From contig DATEAK010000158.1 of NCBI GenBank assembly GCA_035288405.1, positions 1 to 6,471 on the forward strand: 6,471 nucleotides of DNA, read 5' to 3'. Within the stretch, counting starts at the first letter, position 1, and every line of letters begins with the position of its first letter. This document shows, piece after piece, positions 1-5,309 of this stretch. The notes under the pieces were generated by a model that had not been told where the DNA came from, searched no databases, and saw only the letters and a list, made by a program, of their open reading frames with translations. The stretch is from JACPSX01 sp035288405 [NCBI: bacterium]. GTDB lineage: Bacteria > JACPSX01. Position numbers and translations under genes: made by a program.

Positions 1-1228
1 CAGCCTCGGTAACCGATGTGAGCCGGTGCCATCGGTCATAGCCGTATGCAGTTTGAGACGTGGTGATCCCACCCGGGTCGATGAGGGCCTTCCCGGTTCG
101 TCTCCCCTCGAGGTCGTAAGTATAGTTGATCGCGTTCCCCAGGGGGTCTTTGAGCTCCAGGAGCTGGTTGATGGGGTTATAGCTCATCTGGATCGAATTC
201 CCCTTCGGGTTGGTGAGCACCTTCAGGTTTGCCGCCGGGTCATAGGTGTTCTGGATTTGTCCCCCGTTGGGTTGGGTGACTTGCGTGGGGCGGTCTCTTA
301 GGTCATAGGTGTACTGCGTCCCGTTTCCGTTGGGATCGGTAACCGAAAGGAGATTCCCCAGAAGGTCGTAGCTAAACTGAGTCACATGGTCCAGGGGGTT
401 AGTGATCGTCGCGAGGTTCCCGTAAGGATCGTAGGTAAACCGAGTCACATCGGAGACATCGGTGCGAGGGCCATCGATCTGGATCAGTTGCCCGAACGAA
501 TCGTAGGTGAGCACCGTGGTCCCTCCCACGGGGTCAATCACCTGCGTCAGGTTCCCTTTGCCGTCGTAGAGAAACTGGGTGGCGCTGGGAGGCAGCACCT
601 GGGTCGGGGGTTCCGCCTTGCTGGTCGGGCGGTTATAGGTGAGATCGTAGGTGTACGCCGTCACCGCTCCCGTGGGATCCGTTTCGCTCAAGACGTTCCC
701 ATGCGCATCGTAGGTATACGCGGTCGCATACCCGCGCCGGTCCTTGGACAGTGTCTTGTTCAGTTGCTCGTCCCAGGTAAACTCGGTCCTGGTGCCGTCG
801 GACTCTTCGATACTCGAGGTGGCCCCGGTCTTCACGTCGTACCGGTAAATCCTCTGATTCCCCAAGGAATCGGTCGCCGTCGTTTGTCCGGGCTGATCAA
901 AGGAAAGAGTGACGGACTCCCGGCAGCCCGCCTTGCAGGAAGTGATGGCCCGGTCCTGGTTGTCGTAGGTATGGGCTTCCACCTCGTTGCTGTTCTCATC
1001 CAGGATGATGGTCAGGTTATGGACATCTTTTGGGTCGGCATACTGATAGGTCCGGGTGGTCCCGTCCGGGTAGGTGGCCTGGGTGAGGTTGTCATTCGCA
1101 TCGTAAGCATATTGCAAGATGCGGCCCGCCGGGTCGGTGAGAGTCGCCACCTGTTGGTGGTGGTTGTATGTGAATCGGAGCAAGCGGCCCGCGGGATCGG
1201 TTACCGAATACAGAAGCCCTTCCGTGTA
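1..1228 (-). repeat. YD-repeat array inside the RHS protein
   Basis: About 17 degenerate repeats of the YDxxGN or YDxxGR type fall at residues 375, 396, 442, 464, 484, 506, 527, 548, 575, 596, 620, 641, 662, 683, 704, 725 and 751, with a weaker one near 355. The spacing is 20-22 residues in most places and exactly 21 from 641 to 725, which gives a 63-base period in the DNA. Many units contain a DP-G turn before the aromatic residue, as in TDPNGN and IDPVGG. The copies differ in DNA sequence, so this is a protein-level repeat and not a recent tandem duplication. Irregular steps at 396-442 (46 residues), 548-575 (27) and 725-751 (26) mark inserted loops, one of which contains the cysteine pair SCKAGC at 451-456. 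Confidence 0.9.
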
Positions 1229-2290
1229 GGCGAGCTGAAGTGCGTTTCCATTAGGATCTGTGATGTAGAGGAGATGCCCCTCTTGGGGTTCAAAGCTGTA
1301 GGCGATCCCATCCTTTTCTCGGTGGAGATACGTACCATCGGCTAATAGCTGCAGGGTGGTCTTCTCCCCGTACAGAGGGGTGTATGTGCCGTTGTTGGGA
1401 TCCTTCTGGAAGAAGACGGCGCTCCCGTCGGGTTTGGTGATCATCACGCCCCCATCGACCAGGACCTGAAGGAAGCGATGATAGGTGTGGTTCCAACCGT
1501 AGCCGACGTGAGTCATGTCGGTGGAGCGGCTGTTGTACATCCGGGTAAATTCCAGAGGGAGACCTCTTGCCGGAATCCCGAGATCCTTCTGCGGGTTGGT
1601 AAACATGTTGCCGTTATCGACGCTGACCGGGCAGCCCACATTGGACTTGTAGTTGGGGTCTCCCAGAGACACCAGGGAAGGACGGGAGTTGGGATCGGAG
1701 TTGCACAGGGAAACGGGAACCGAGGCGGTGGCTCCTTGGGCGTCTCGGACGGTAGCAACGCCTTTCTGGAAGCCTTCGAGAGCACAAGGCCGGCAGCCCG
1801 CCGCTTTTACATGGGGTAAGCGCCAGTCCTCCGGGTTGCCATTAGCTACTTGATAGATAAACTGGACTTGGGTTCTTTCCGGACGATCGCAACCACCGTA
1901 ACCAATCTGGATCCTTTCTCCCTTACAGTCATAAATTTGCCATTTTATTGTGGTCCACTGGACCCCATCAATCACCGGGCACTTGAGCTCCCCATAGCCC
2001 CCCTCCGGTGGGTTATGGCTGACGATAGAGTACAGTGCGTAGGCCGTCTCCCCAGCGTACAACCCCGCAGCTCTCCAAGCCCCCTGGGAGCCAATGCTCC
2101 CCACCGTGGCACTCCAGGTATAGGGAGGTATTCCTCCCGTGACGGTGAACTGCTGGGTCGTGCCGCTACCTCCCGTGACACTGGAAGGGCTTAGGCGCAA
2201 GGCCGCATGGGATACCTGGAGAAATAAACAAAAGATCGCGAAGAAAGTAAAGATCCAAAAGGAAAGAACACCACTGCGAGGAAACCTCAT
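1..2290 (-). CDS. Exported RHS/YD-repeat protein, C-terminal part outside window
   Basis: An open frame of 763 codons runs from an ATG at 2290 to the left window edge without a stop, so the 3' end is missing. The start follows GGAGGAG six bases upstream. Residues 1-29 look like a Sec signal peptide: Arg2 and Arg5, a hydrophobic core at 8-26, and a probable cut after SHA (27-29). There is no proper lipobox around Cys21. Residues 31-65 resemble a bacterial Ig-like strand set (TQQFTVTGGIPPYTWS). Residues 218-275 match the DUF6531 RHS N-terminal domain (DNGNMF, IPARGLPLEFTRMYNSRS, GYGWNHTY). From about 355 onward there are YD repeats. In the RHS family these build a shell that encloses a variable C-terminal domain, often a toxin with an immunity gene next to it; that part lies off the left edge. 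Secretion is supported by the sequence, but a toxin role is inferred only. The gene is separated from its upstream neighbour by 298 bases that carry its own promoter. Confidence 0.93.
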   Translation of the reverse strand, partial: MRFPRSGVLSFWIFTFFAIFCLFLQVSHAALRLSPSSVTGGSGTTQQFTVTGGIPPYTWSATVGSIGSQGAWRAAGLYAGETAYALYSIVSHNPPEGGYGELKCPVIDGVQWTTIKWQIYDCKGERIQIGYGGCDRPERTQVQFIYQVANGNPEDWRLPHVKAAGCRPCALEGFQKGVATVRDAQGATASVPVSLCNSDPNSRPSLVSLGDPNYKSNVGCPVSVDNGNMFTNPQKDLGIPARGLPLEFTRMYNSRSTDMTHVGYGWNHTYHRFLQVLVDGGVMITKPDGSAVFFQKDPNNGTYTPLYGEKTTLQLLADGTYLHREKDGIAYSFEPQEGHLLYITDPNGNALQLAYTEGLLYSVTDPAGRLLRFTYNHHQQVATLTDPAGRILQYAYDANDNLTQATYPDGTTRTYQYADPKDVHNLTIILDENSNEVEAHTYDNQDRAITSCKAGCRESVTLSFDQPGQTTATDSLGNQRIYRYDVKTGATSSIEESDGTRTEFTWDEQLNKTLSKDRRGYATAYTYDAHGNVLSETDPTGAVTAYTYDLTYNRPTSKAEPPTQVLPPSATQFLYDGKGNLTQVIDPVGGTTVLTYDSFGQLIQIDGPRTDVSDVTRFTYDPYGNLATITNPLDHVTQFSYDLLGNLLSVTDPNGNGTQYTYDLRDRPTQVTQPNGGQIQNTYDPAANLKVLTNPKGNSIQMSYNPINQLLELKDPLGNAINYTYDLEGRRTGKALIDPGGITTSQTAYGYDRWHRLTSVTEA

Positions 2291-2296
2291 GGTCGT

Positions 2297-2303
2297 CTCC
2301 TCC
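2297..2303 (-). promoter_or_regulatory. Ribosome binding site of the RHS gene
   Basis: GGAGGAG on the minus strand ends six bases before the ATG at 2290. This near-perfect anti-16S match, directly followed by a signal-peptide-like start (MRFPRSG), fixes the start codon of the RHS protein. Confidence 0.85.
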
Positions 2304-2359
2304 GGAAGAGGGGTTATCGGAAAACGTCAGGAGTTGTGCGGGACTGTTCTCAAAGCGAA

Positions 2360-2375
2360 AGCAAGAGGAGTGCCA
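2360..2375 (-). promoter_or_regulatory. Sigma-54 (RpoN) promoter for the RHS gene
   Basis: On the minus strand the sequence reads TGGCAC-TCCTC-TTGCT. This matches the -24/-12 consensus TGGCAC-N5-TTGCW at every fixed base, with GG and GC exactly ten bases apart. With the C of the -12 GC at 2361, transcription would start near 2349, leaving a leader of about 59 bases before the RHS ATG at 2290. Orientation, distance and position in the intergenic region all fit. Sigma-54 promoters need an AAA+ enhancer-binding activator, and inverted repeats that could bind one lie upstream at 2437-2467 and 2495-2521. I found no good sigma-70 promoter in the same gap. Confidence 0.72.
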
Positions 2376-2436
2376 CAGAAAAAAGGAGGAACTACGAAAA
2401 AGAGAATGGGCGTGAGATCAAGGGATTAAGGCTCTT

Positions 2437-2467
2437 GGAGCTTTTCTGGAAAGTGTCCAAAAGCTCC
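2437..2467. promoter_or_regulatory. 31-bp inverted repeat upstream of the RHS promoter
   Basis: The nine-base arms GGAGCTTTT (2437-2445) and AAAAGCTCC (2459-2467) are perfect inverted complements. Inside them GGA (2448-2450) and TCC (2456-2458) also pair, leaving a two-base bulge and a five-base loop. No T-run follows on either strand, which argues against a standard intrinsic terminator for the TPR gene that ends at 2589. The centre lies about 103 bases upstream of the predicted sigma-54 start, a normal position for an enhancer-binding site. It could still be an RNA hairpin at the 3' end of the TPR transcript. Confidence 0.5.
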
Positions 2468-2494: not shown

Positions 2495-2521
2495 TGCACA
2501 TGGGACTGTGCAATTTGCACA
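2495..2521. promoter_or_regulatory. Operator-like palindrome with a third half-site
   Basis: TGTGCAATTTGCACA at 2507-2521 is a perfect 15-bp palindrome (7+1+7). TGCACA at 2495-2500 adds a further half-site, so three TGCACA/TGTGCA units in alternating orientation lie within 27 bases. The palindrome centre (2514) is about 165 bases upstream of the predicted sigma-54 start. The half-sites resemble those of enhancer-binding proteins such as NtrC (TGCAC-N7-GTGCA) or NifA (TGT-N10-ACA), but the spacers here differ by one base from both, so no specific regulator can be named. Confidence 0.45.
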
Positions 2522-2588
2522 CGGATTTGTGGATAGGCAGATTGGACGGCGTCGAATTGAAGCGGGGATTCCTCAGACGAACTCGAGA

Positions 2589-3239
2589 TTACTTTTCGTC
2601 GCCCTCTTCCCGACCCAGAAGCTGATTGAAGAGATGATCCCAGTTCACCTTTTCGACTTCCTCTTGGGTGATGGGAGGCAAGCTTGCGGGCTCCCCTTGC
2701 ACGGGCTCCGGCGGGAAAGAAGCAGGCATCGGCGGCAGAGTCGGACGCGGCCCTTTGGATTCGGTGCGCTGGCGCCGCAAGTTACGGTTGGCTTCCGCCA
2801 GCCTCTCCAGGGTCACCTGCTGTTTGCGCATGATCTGCTGCATTTTCTGGGCTGAGACGTTCAGATTGCGGGCGTAGTTTTCCAGGTTATCCGAGAGCTG
2901 GCGCAAGGCCCGGCTGCTGTCGAGAAACTTTTTGAGACAATCGTGCCTCTGGCTCACCTCAAAGCGGCCGTAGCGCACCGGGCTGATCTCTTTGAGTATT
3001 TCGTAGTGGCGCAGTGCCTCCTCATACTTGCCTTGTGCCTGCAGGATCTCGGCCAGCAGGAGGTGGGCCTGGAAGTGATCGGCCTTGCGGGCAACCACCT
3101 GGGAAAGGTGATCGAGAGCGCGCTCCCATTGCTGGTTTTGAGCGCACTCGACTCCTTTTTGAAAATGAGCCCGGATATGGCCATCCCGGTTATCGCGGAT
3201 GGCGAGAAGGATCTCGTGGATTTTGGGGAGGATCTTCAT
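2589..3239 (-). CDS. TPR, coiled-coil and proline-rich protein of unknown function
   Basis: This 216-residue protein starts at an ATG preceded by GGGAG six bases upstream. It has no signal peptide or membrane segment and is probably cytoplasmic. Residues 23-54 and 57-87 form two TPR-like helix pairs (AHFQKGVECAQNQQWERALD; LLLAEILQAQGKYEEALRHY). Residues 105-158 are rich in Leu, Gln, Arg and Lys with heptad-like spacing and predict a long helix or coiled coil. Residues 164-190 are proline-rich (RPTLPPMPASFPPEPV), and the end is acidic with a short helix (NWDHLFNQLLGREEGDEK). TPRs usually hold protein partners, so a scaffold role is plausible, but no function can be given. It lies 123 bases after engB, far enough for separate expression. 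I do not recognise a named family for the whole protein. Confidence 0.85.
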   Translation of the reverse strand: MKILPKIHEILLAIRDNRDGHIRAHFQKGVECAQNQQWERALDHLSQVVARKADHFQAHLLLAEILQAQGKYEEALRHYEILKEISPVRYGRFEVSQRHDCLKKFLDSSRALRQLSDNLENYARNLNVSAQKMQQIMRKQQVTLERLAEANRNLRRQRTESKGPRPTLPPMPASFPPEPVQGEPASLPPITQEEVEKVNWDHLFNQLLGREEGDEK

Positions 3240-3362: not shown

Positions 3363-3983
3363 TCATAGCAAATTCGACCTGACACTCACAACAGATTTTT
3401 TTCGACAAAGATCCTCAACGGCGCGCCACAAACGATCCCTTCCTTCTCCTGTGGTAGCAGAAAAAGGGATGATTTCTTCCTCTTCTCTCAGCTCCAGTGA
3501 CCGCGCGATCTCCTTGCGCGCTTCGATCCACGCGGACCGGGAAAGCTTGTCCGTCTTTGTGGCCACCAGGACCACAGGAATCCGCCAGTGTTGGAGCCAA
3601 TCGCGCATCTGGCGATCGGAATCCATACTGGGATGGCGCGAGTCAATCAACAAAACCGCGCCGCGCAGCGTGGGGCGGGAGGAGAGGTAGGTCTCGATGA
3701 GTTCGCGCCAGGTGCCGCGCACGGCGGCGGCGACCTTGGCAAAGCCGTAGCCCGGCAGATCGGCCAGAACAAATTCATCGTTGATCTTCAGGAACTGAAT
3801 GGCCCGAGTCTTCCCCGGGGTGGAGCTCACCCGAGCAGCCCGCTTTTGGTGAAGGAGAACATTGATGAGGGAAGACTTGCCCACGTTGGATCGCCCCGCC
3901 ACGGCGATTTCGGGAAGGACCGCCTGCGGGTAGTGGTCCGGAGATACGGCGCTGGTCAGGAGCTCGAAACGAGCTGCTTTCAT
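3363..3983 (-). CDS. engB: Ribosome-assembly GTPase EngB (YsxC/YihA)
   Basis: This 206-residue protein has the normal EngB length and a full set of GTPase motifs: G1 P-loop GRSNVGKS at 30-37, a G2 region with SSTPGKT at 53-59, G3 DLPGYG at 75-80, G4 TKTD at 142-145 and G5 SAT at 175-177. The PGKT and DLPGYGFA stretches are typical of the EngB branch of TrmE-Era-EngA-YihA-Septin GTPases. The family binds GTP and helps late assembly of the large ribosomal subunit in the cytoplasm, and it is essential in several bacteria. The ATG start gives the usual short N-terminal lead before the G domain. The nearest Shine-Dalgarno match, GGAG, is 12 bases upstream, longer than ideal. Only 21 bases separate the gene from the DUF1015 stop, so translation may be partly coupled to it. 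Confidence 0.96.
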   Translation of the reverse strand: MKAARFELLTSAVSPDHYPQAVLPEIAVAGRSNVGKSSLINVLLHQKRAARVSSTPGKTRAIQFLKINDEFVLADLPGYGFAKVAAAVRGTWRELIETYLSSRPTLRGAVLLIDSRHPSMDSDRQMRDWLQHWRIPVVLVATKTDKLSRSAWIEARKEIARSLELREEEEIIPFSATTGEGRDRLWRAVEDLCRKKSVVSVRSNLL

Positions 3984-4004
3984 GGGGAATAGCGACTCCA
4001 GAGG

Positions 4005-5309
4005 TCAGGAAAGTTTCTGAATGACCAGTCCGGTCAAAAGCTTCGGGTAAAAATAGGTGGACTTTTGCGGCATCCGCAGCCCGGCCGTGGTTACCTGCCG
4101 AATCTCTTCCATAAGAGTCGGGTTCAGGAAAAATGCCGCATCGAATTCCCCGCGGGAGACCCGCTCCAACGCTTCGGGGGCGCTGCGCGTGTAGGCCACG
4201 GCCCCTTCCCGCTCCATCTCCTCGATCCGAAGGCCCAGAGCTTTTTCGAAGACGCCGGTATGGAGAACCGAGACTTCCAGACGCTTCCAGACCAACGGAA
4301 GGTCCGGGGAGCCGGTTTTTTCCAGGAGCCTTTCGTCTTTCAGAGTGATGACCTGCAGGTTCCCTTGCCGGGAATAAACGCCAAAGCTCTGTCTCCGCTT
4401 GGCGAGAGTGGAGAGAAACATGGGAAGCGCCTCCGGAGTCGCCTGGCCATGATCGTTGACGTGGAAATCGTCCTGCAGTCGGGAGAAAAGGGTGTCCATT
4501 TGATTTGCCGGCAGTTTTAACAGGCGATGGGTTGGGAAAATGGCGGATCCTTCGGATTCCATCCGGGAAAAGTACATGATGGCGTAATTGTACGGCTGCG
4601 CCGCAGCCTCGCCGCGCTCCCGGCGGACTTCATCTCGGATGGCCAGGGCCGTCTCGTAACGGTGATGGCCATCGGCAATGACCGCCTTCTTGTCTTTCAT
4701 CAGGGCCGCCACCCGCTGCACCAGCGCCGGCTCCGAAACGGACCAGAAGACGTGGCGGACCTCTTCGTTGTCCACGAAGTCCCACAGAGGAGGTTCCTTC
4801 TCGGCGCTCAAAAGCGTTGCTTCAATCTCCCCGCCTGGATCCGAATACAGAGACATGACCTGACTCAAGTGGGCGGGACAGGCTCTGCGCAGCGCCAGCA
4901 AGTCGGCCTTGGGTTTCGGAAAGGTGGTTTCGTGGGGCATGATCCAGCCGCTGGAAAGTTCTTCCAGGCGCAGGAGGGCAATGAAGCCTCGGCGAACCCG
5001 CTCCCGGCCTTCCACAGAGTAGTGCTGGCGGTAGAGGTAAATGGCCTCCCGGGGATCTTCCACCAGGACACCTTGCCGCAGCCAGTCCCCAAAATACTTC
5101 CCGGCCCTCAGGAAGCGGTTGTCCGCGGGGCCGTCGCCAGGCAATTCCCGGCCCAGGATCAGATGAACTACATTGTGAGGGTCGAGGTTGTGGAGGCGTT
5201 CCCGTTCGGACGGAGAGATGACGTCGTAAGGAGGGGACACGAGATGGGCAATGTCGCGGTACTTTTCCTCGTTGTATAGAATCCCGTGAAACGCGCGGAT
5301 ATCAACCAC
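4005..5309 (-). CDS. DUF1015 family protein
   Basis: This is a complete 434-residue protein of normal family length. Recognisable blocks are VSPPYDVIS near the N-terminus (24-32), PHETTFPKPKADLLALR (125-141), IADGHHRYETALAIRD (211-226), LNPT (396-399 region) and the C-terminal MPQKSTYFYPKLLTGLV (413-429). ADGHHRYETA and the MPQKSTYFYPK tail are hallmarks of DUF1015. The clustered His and Asp residues at 213-216 suggest an active or ligand site, but the reaction is not established to my knowledge. There is no signal peptide or membrane segment, so it is probably cytoplasmic. The start is GTG, supported by AGGGGA six bases upstream. The gene begins 22 bases after the amidotransferase-like gene and ends 21 bases before engB, so it is probably co-transcribed with both. 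Confidence 0.93.
   Translation of the reverse strand: MVDIRAFHGILYNEEKYRDIAHLVSPPYDVISPSERERLHNLDPHNVVHLILGRELPGDGPADNRFLRAGKYFGDWLRQGVLVEDPREAIYLYRQHYSVEGRERVRRGFIALLRLEELSSGWIMPHETTFPKPKADLLALRRACPAHLSQVMSLYSDPGGEIEATLLSAEKEPPLWDFVDNEEVRHVFWSVSEPALVQRVAALMKDKKAVIADGHHRYETALAIRDEVRRERGEAAAQPYNYAIMYFSRMESEGSAIFPTHRLLKLPANQMDTLFSRLQDDFHVNDHGQATPEALPMFLSTLAKRRQSFGVYSRQGNLQVITLKDERLLEKTGSPDLPLVWKRLEVSVLHTGVFEKALGLRIEEMEREGAVAYTRSAPEALERVSRGEFDAAFFLNPTLMEEIRQVTTAGLRMPQKSTYFYPKLLTGLVIQKLS

What the first reader, a model, noticed from the sequence alone, without database searches (positions are those of the whole stretch)
2349..2375. Exact sigma-54 promoter core in front of an exported RHS protein
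TGGCAC-N5-TTGC with GG-N10-GC spacing occurs once in the RHS intergenic gap, on the correct strand, 59 bases (predicted leader) before an ATG with a strong ribosome binding site. A full match in such a position is unlikely to be chance. It would place the RHS protein under RpoN and an enhancer-binding activator, implying inducible, condition-specific production. The promoter match is seen directly; the regulation is inferred.
Basis: partly seen in the sequence, partly recalled or inferred. Interest (0 to 1): 0.62.

Follow-up and report, generated by a model that had tools for sequence, protein, structure and literature searches.

The report
Activator-gated promoter of an RHS gene
In front of a gene for a large, probably exported repeat protein lies a promoter of the kind that fires only when an activator protein bound upstream drives it, and the matching activator sites, which recur in front of such promoters in other bacteria, suggest a shared and apparently undescribed control circuit.

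Summary
The core is real: TGGCAC-N5-TTGC, minus strand 2375-2361, once in the window, 59 nt (predicted leader) before the RHS ATG at 2290. It scores 16.4 on a matrix from 29 published Salmonella sites (those score 14.1-23.9, leave-one-out; next best in the window 6.5; 5 of 10,000 gap shuffles as good). The perfect dyad occurs in 6 of 40 distant genomes, in 9 regions, and in 8 of 9 a sigma-54 core (11.2 or more) lies 75-131 bp downstream, correctly oriented (random positions: 292 of 18,000). In G095 the layout is almost that of the window, including the 21-bp tandem, and the dyads lie just behind a gene for a sigma-54 activator of the NtrC type. So the dyad is very probably an activator site and the RHS promoter very probably sigma-54-dependent (0.92). 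Not shown: rpoN in this host (no genome held), transcript, binding. No RHS ortholog was found in 736 genomes; 0 of 26 distant RHS genes has such a core. The mechanism is known; the regulon and its activator look undescribed.

The parts
2361..2375 (-). sigma-54 -24/-12 core TGGCAC-TCCTC-TTGC
   Evidence: only exact match in the window, PSSM 16.4, 5 of 10,000 gap shuffles as good
2349..2349 (-). predicted transcription start (12 nt after the C of the -12 element)
   Evidence: inference from sigma-54 geometry; not mapped
2495..2512 (.). dyad 1, TGCACA-N6-TGTGCA: activator (enhancer-binding protein) site, proximal
   Evidence: the same perfect dyad lies 75-131 bp before a sigma-54 core in 8 of 9 regions of other genomes
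2516..2533 (.). dyad 2, TGCACA-N6-TGTGGA (one mismatch), 21 bp from dyad 1; same spacing and same linker as a tandem pair in genome G095
2437..2467 (.). inverted repeat with 9-bp exact arms and 13-nt loop, no T tract; possible end of the upstream transcript or a further operator
   Evidence: 14 of 1,000 gap shuffles have such a dyad; one search finds no minus-strand terminator
2416..2428 (+). IHF-like site with one mismatch, between dyads and core (weak)
   Evidence: 5 such matches in the window, 2.19 expected
2297..2303 (-). ribosome binding site GGAGGAG
   Evidence: read directly
2..2290 (-). RHS gene, first 763 codons: likely signal peptide, unassigned N-terminal part, DUF6531 at 219-294, RHS repeats; runs off the window
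   Evidence: the signal peptide is read by eye
2589..3239 (-). TPR protein gene, upstream neighbour on the same strand

Best explanation
The gap 2291-2588 holds a sigma-54 (RpoN) promoter for the RHS gene with its own activator sites. Polymerase with sigma-54 would sit closed on TGGCAC-N5-TTGC (2375-2361); a two-component activator of the NtrC type would bind the tandem TGCACA-N6-TGTGCA dyads 120-158 bp upstream, loop over and open the complex using ATP, starting transcription near 2349. Shown: the sequences, their rarity, geometry, and that the dyad keeps company with sigma-54 cores in other genomes. Inferred: binding, the activator (best candidate: a relative of the regulator encoded beside the dyads in G095), the start site and conditional expression.
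For: Core: 0.01 expected; 16.4; next best 6.5; 5 of 10,000. No sigma-70-like match at 2200-2700 (only 0.2 expected by chance, so weak). Tandem dyads: 1 of 3,000 gap shuffles, only such pair in the window; 3 matches with up to 2 mismatches against 0.10 expected. Cross-genome: perfect dyad at 11 places in 6 of 40 genomes, reversed control at 2 places in 2. Grouped into 9 regions, 8 have a core of 11.2-18.2 at 75-131 bp, right orientation; the ninth has a 6.5 core at 74 bp before a gene of the same small family as three of the others. Random positions in the same stretches: 292 of 18,000, true cores included. G095: three dyads, two of them 21 bp apart with the linker AAT as here, TGGCACCGATTTTGC (16.4) at 84 bp, an exported-looking product, and a sigma-54 response regulator gene ending about 20 bp before the dyads. 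Sigma54_DBD in 36 of 40 distant genomes.
Against: Host genome not held. One of the 8 regions (G202:C35) was known before the count, the 11.2 limit was set on the lowest of the 8, and by their products they fall into about 4 promoter types, so they are not 8 independent cases. 34 of 40 genomes lack the perfect dyad. A tandem pattern in G479 has no core in place (best 13.8, 771 bp off, wrong side). Single 6-bp dyads are not rare in the gap: 57 of 1,000 shuffles have as many as observed, and 128 of 1,000 have a 7-bp palindrome. The nearer dyad is 120 bp from the core here, near the top of the 75-131 range. No ortholog of the RHS gene; 0 of 26 distant RHS genes score above 7.0. Sigma54_DBD not found in G004, G011, G069, G135. 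In Salmonella 41 of 70 predicted bound sites are inside genes (PMC3844500, passages).
Confidence: 0.92

Rival explanations
1. Chance match: the core is a coincidence and the RHS gene is read through from the TPR gene or from a promoter type that simple scans miss.
For: 12 of 1,000 window shuffles reach the score; no rpoN test; no minus-strand terminator; 26 of 26 distant RHS genes lack such a core.
Against: The dyad found here is tied to sigma-54 cores in 8 of 9 regions elsewhere; core and dyads together by chance are very unlikely.
Confidence: 0.04
2. The sigma-54 promoter is real, but the activator site that matters here is not the tandem dyads: a distant site, or the 9-bp inverted repeat 2437-2467.
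For: Activator sites can lie more than 1 kb off (PMC8855297, passage); the inverted repeat has exact 9-bp arms, 14 of 1,000 shuffles, centre 77 bp from the core.
Against: The dyads recur before sigma-54 cores elsewhere; the inverted repeat was not sought elsewhere.
Confidence: 0.1
3. Sigma-54 and the dyads act here to repress, or to drive a small RNA, rather than to express the RHS protein.
For: RpoN can repress by binding (PMC8855297, passage); the P. putida Rhs effector Tke2 rose in an rpoN mutant (PMC5363822, passage).
Against: Leader length, strand and ribosome binding site fit the RHS gene.
Confidence: 0.05

Closest known systems
Sigma-54 promoters with upstream activator sites (glnA, glnK, pspA class)
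   Same: -24/-12 core with score in range, tandem dyads upstream, short leader
   Different: Activator unidentified; target is an RHS gene
PEP-CTERM box with PrsK/PrsR (Haft 2006, PMC1569441; section 7 read whole, other passages)
   Same: Genes of exported proteins behind long gaps, motif 1 (sometimes repeated), then a -24/-12 motif
   Different: Motif 1 there is 17 nt ending in TTTACA with spacer 32-92; here 18 nt, TGCACA-N6-TGTGCA, 120 bp from the core and 75-131 elsewhere. The paper found its motifs only in Proteobacteria. The regulator beside the dyads in G095 is below the PrsR cut-off (435.6 against 502.6), and two large products near other dyads do not end in a PEP-CTERM-like tail (by eye)
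NtrC enhancer, TGCAC-N7-GTGCA (recalled, from no call)
   Same: Same half-sites
   Different: Spacer one base longer; G095 regulator below the NtrC cut-off (457.2 against 558.6)
RpoN/Sfa2 control of the H2-T6SS in Pseudomonas aeruginosa (PMC8855297, passages)
   Same: Sigma-54 and an activator drive genes of secreted proteins
   Different: hcp/vgrG clusters of a T6SS; no T6SS gene recognised in this window

Membership tests
Sigma-54-dependent promoter | -24/-12 core with GG-N10-GC spacing | tested here: met
Sigma-54-dependent promoter | Score comparable with published sites | tested here: met
   16.4 against 14.1-23.9, lower half
Sigma-54-dependent promoter | Activator sites upstream | tested here: met
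   by sequence and by recurrence with cores in 8 of 9 regions; binding itself not tested
Sigma-54-dependent promoter | rpoN and an activator in the same genome | not testable with these tools
   no genome held; 36 of 40 distant genomes have Sigma54_DBD
Sigma-54-dependent promoter | Transcript start about 12 nt after GC, lost without RpoN | not testable with these tools
   needs RNA data
Sigma-54-dependent promoter | Conservation before orthologous genes | tested here: inconclusive
   no ortholog in 736 genomes; 0 of 26 distant RHS genes have such a core
PEP-CTERM box / PrsR regulon | 17-nt motif ending TTTACA, 32-92 nt before the core | tested here: not met
   dyad is TGCACA-N6-TGTGCA, 120 bp before the core
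PEP-CTERM box / PrsR regulon | Target protein ends in a PEP-CTERM tail | not testable with these tools
   RHS gene runs off the window
NtrC enhancer site | TGCAC-N7-GTGCA (recalled) | tested here: not met
   spacer is N8
RHS/YD-repeat protein | RHS repeats and DUF6531 | tested here: met
   PF05593 E 9.6e-53, PF20148 E 1.9e-17

The most novel reading that the evidence does not exclude
TGCACA-N6-TGTGCA is the operator of an undescribed NtrC-type two-component activator that, in several distantly related lineages, runs a sigma-54 regulon of cell-envelope and exported proteins: small membrane proteins, ComEA-like exported proteins with an HD-GYP-like gene, and here an RHS protein. It would be a counterpart of the PEP-CTERM box/PrsR circuit with a different operator, and would put an exported RHS gene under such a switch.
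Probability: 0.5. Interest if true: 0.5.

Novelty: new member of a known kind. Interest (0 to 1): 0.42.

Why it matters
Triggers of large RHS proteins are mostly unknown (my knowledge). This gives one a promoter that should be silent without its activator, a defined operator, and a candidate activator in a related layout. It also gives a motif with which the same circuit can be traced through uncultured lineages. It does not change what is known of how sigma-54 works.

Tried and rejected
DUF1015 in phylum samples: 48 of 60, 54 of 60, 135 of 148; best 43, 43 and 44%. The host phylum stays open.

Orthologs: RHS residues 1-300 match in 6 of 77, 6 of 118, 14 of 149, 3 of 95 and 21 of 297 genomes; most matches lie in the DUF6531 part, those of 5 genomes only within residues 17-84. 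None in viral contigs; plasmids gave distant RHS proteins under 60% identity. Upstream survey: of 47 candidate loci 5 had no RHS match in the script, 16 were dropped for lack of a start or of upstream DNA, 26 were scored, best -5.5 to 7.0, none with the dyad (one search is an earlier partial version).

PEP-CTERM box: considered because of the layout and rejected as a membership. NtrC site: spacer differs. RNA element: Rfam gave only two hits far below the family thresholds, fold z -1.10. GG-N10-GC alone rejected. IHF-like site weak. Papers: searches; four spellings of the dyad gave 0 papers (figures are not searched); the dyad half-sites are not in the main text of PMC4641369, PMC3333781 or PMC9850573. 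I did not see a described sigma-54 promoter of a signal-peptide RHS gene in these listings and passages.

Full report
Observation. The window carries one exact TGGCAC-N5-TTGC, minus strand, 2375-2361 (0.01 expected). The genes I assign all lie on the minus strand: an end-open ORF of unknown family, a C26 peptidase, DUF1015, EngB/YsxC, a TPR protein and, after a 298-bp gap, the RHS protein, which starts at ATG 2290 and runs off the window. The core lies in that gap on the RHS strand; a start at 2349 gives a 59-nt leader, and GGAGGAG stands 6 nt before the ATG.

Strength of the core. A matrix from the 29 intergenic sites listed in PMC3844500 Table 3 scores it 16.4; those sites, each left out in turn, score 14.1 to 23.9; the second place in the window scores 6.5; 12 of 1,000 window shuffles and 5 of 10,000 gap shuffles reach it. 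In 1.68 Mb of fetched loci (partly overlapping) 10 places, 9 distinct, score 16.3 or more; 5 of 9 lie outside any ORF of 100 aa or more, and 2 of 9 have the start of such an ORF within 300 nt downstream, some loci ending there.

The tandem dyads. Upstream lie TGCACA-N6-TGTGCA (2495-2512) and TGCACA-N6-TGTGGA (2516-2533), 21 bp apart. A pair with halves this alike occurs in 1 of 3,000 gap shuffles and nowhere else in the window; the criterion was set after seeing them, and single dyads of 6 bp are common (57 of 1,000 shuffles have as many). Between dyads and core are a 9-bp inverted repeat without T tract and a weak IHF-like match.

Test in other genomes. A tandem pattern was found in 2 of 395 genomes of one phylum, control 0; my rough estimate of chance is about 1. 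One of the two, G202, has two dyads 32 bp apart (the second with one mismatch) and a core scoring 11.2, 86 bp downstream in the right orientation, before a MiaB-like ORF (named by eye); the other, G479, has none in place. I then sought the perfect single dyad in 40 genomes chosen for the nearest DUF1015, not for the dyad (G202 being one of them): 11 places in 6 genomes, against 2 places in 2 genomes for the reversed control. Three places in G095 belong to one gap, so there are 9 regions. In 8 of 9 a core scoring 11.2 to 18.2 lies 75-131 bp beyond the nearest such dyad, correctly oriented; the distances are 84 (G095), 76 (G187), 75 and 99 (G209), 99 (G169), 86 and 75 (G202) and 131 (G178). The ninth (G178:C4) has a core of 6.5 at 74 bp. 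Random positions in the same stretches have such a core, 60-140 bp off on either side, in 292 of 18,000. Without G202:C35, known beforehand, it is 7 of 8. Four regions precede genes of one small membrane protein family (DUF6722 for the G187 member; the others by eye), three precede ComEA-like exported proteins (one tested) with an HD-GYP-like gene after them (by motif), so there are about four independent promoter types. Even so, the link of dyad and sigma-54 core is far beyond chance.

G095. Its gap holds three dyads, two of them 21 bp apart with the linker AAT exactly as in the window, then TGGCACCGATTTTGC (16.4), then an ORF beginning like an exported protein. The gene that ends about 20 bp before the dyads, on the same strand, encodes a response regulator with receiver, Sigma54_activat and HTH_8 domains. 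It is below the NCBIfam cut-offs for AtoC, NtrC and PrsR (best 25 of 119 families shown). It is my candidate for the activator family; adjacency is the only evidence. In the other eight 20-kb stretches only one more such gene was seen by motif, about 7.5 kb from the dyad in G202.

What it is not. The PEP-CTERM box (PMC1569441, section 7 read) has the same layout but a 17-nt motif ending in TTTACA, and was seen there only in Proteobacteria. The NtrC site as I recall it has a spacer one base shorter.

Open points. No genome is held, the host phylum is unknown, Sigma54_DBD is in 36 of 40 distant genomes, no RHS ortholog was found in 736 genomes of five phylum samples, and 0 of 26 distant RHS genes has a comparable core: sigma-54 control is a trait of this gene, not of RHS genes at large as far as surveyed. 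RNA and binding data are lacking. The RHS part matches T6SS Rhs proteins and teneurins of known structure; its end lies outside the window.

Verdict. A sigma-54 promoter with its own activator sites, 0.92; a member of a known kind, with an operator and regulon that I did not find described in the searches named.

Noticed in passing
L212 1-1845 (G095): Sigma-54 response regulator gene followed by three TGCACA-N6-TGTGCA dyads, a strong core and an exported-protein start: a compact candidate activator-target pair.
   Followed up: partly
L207, L208, L211: ComEA-like exported protein plus an HD-GYP-like gene behind dyad and sigma-54 core in three genomes; in two of the three regions (L216, L220) an exported-looking protein of about 1,000 codons follows.
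   Followed up: partly
L205, L206, L209, L210: Small membrane proteins with the N-terminal stretch QIDNLSK (DUF6722 for the one tested) behind the same dyad and a core.
   Followed up: partly
window 2437-2467: 31-bp inverted repeat with 9-bp exact arms behind the TPR gene, no T tract on either strand.
   Followed up: partly
window 3363-5309: DUF1015 directly before EngB/YsxC, an order also seen in Nitrospinota loci (L008, L015, L018) at 36-42% identity.
   Followed up: partly
L033 924 and 2204: Two similar strong sigma-54-like sites (17.0 and 18.5) in non-coding DNA of an Anammoxibacter locus with no long ORF start close downstream.
   Followed up: no
L119 2396 (minus): A sigma-54-like site (16.7) overlaps the start of a DUF1015 gene.
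   Followed up: no
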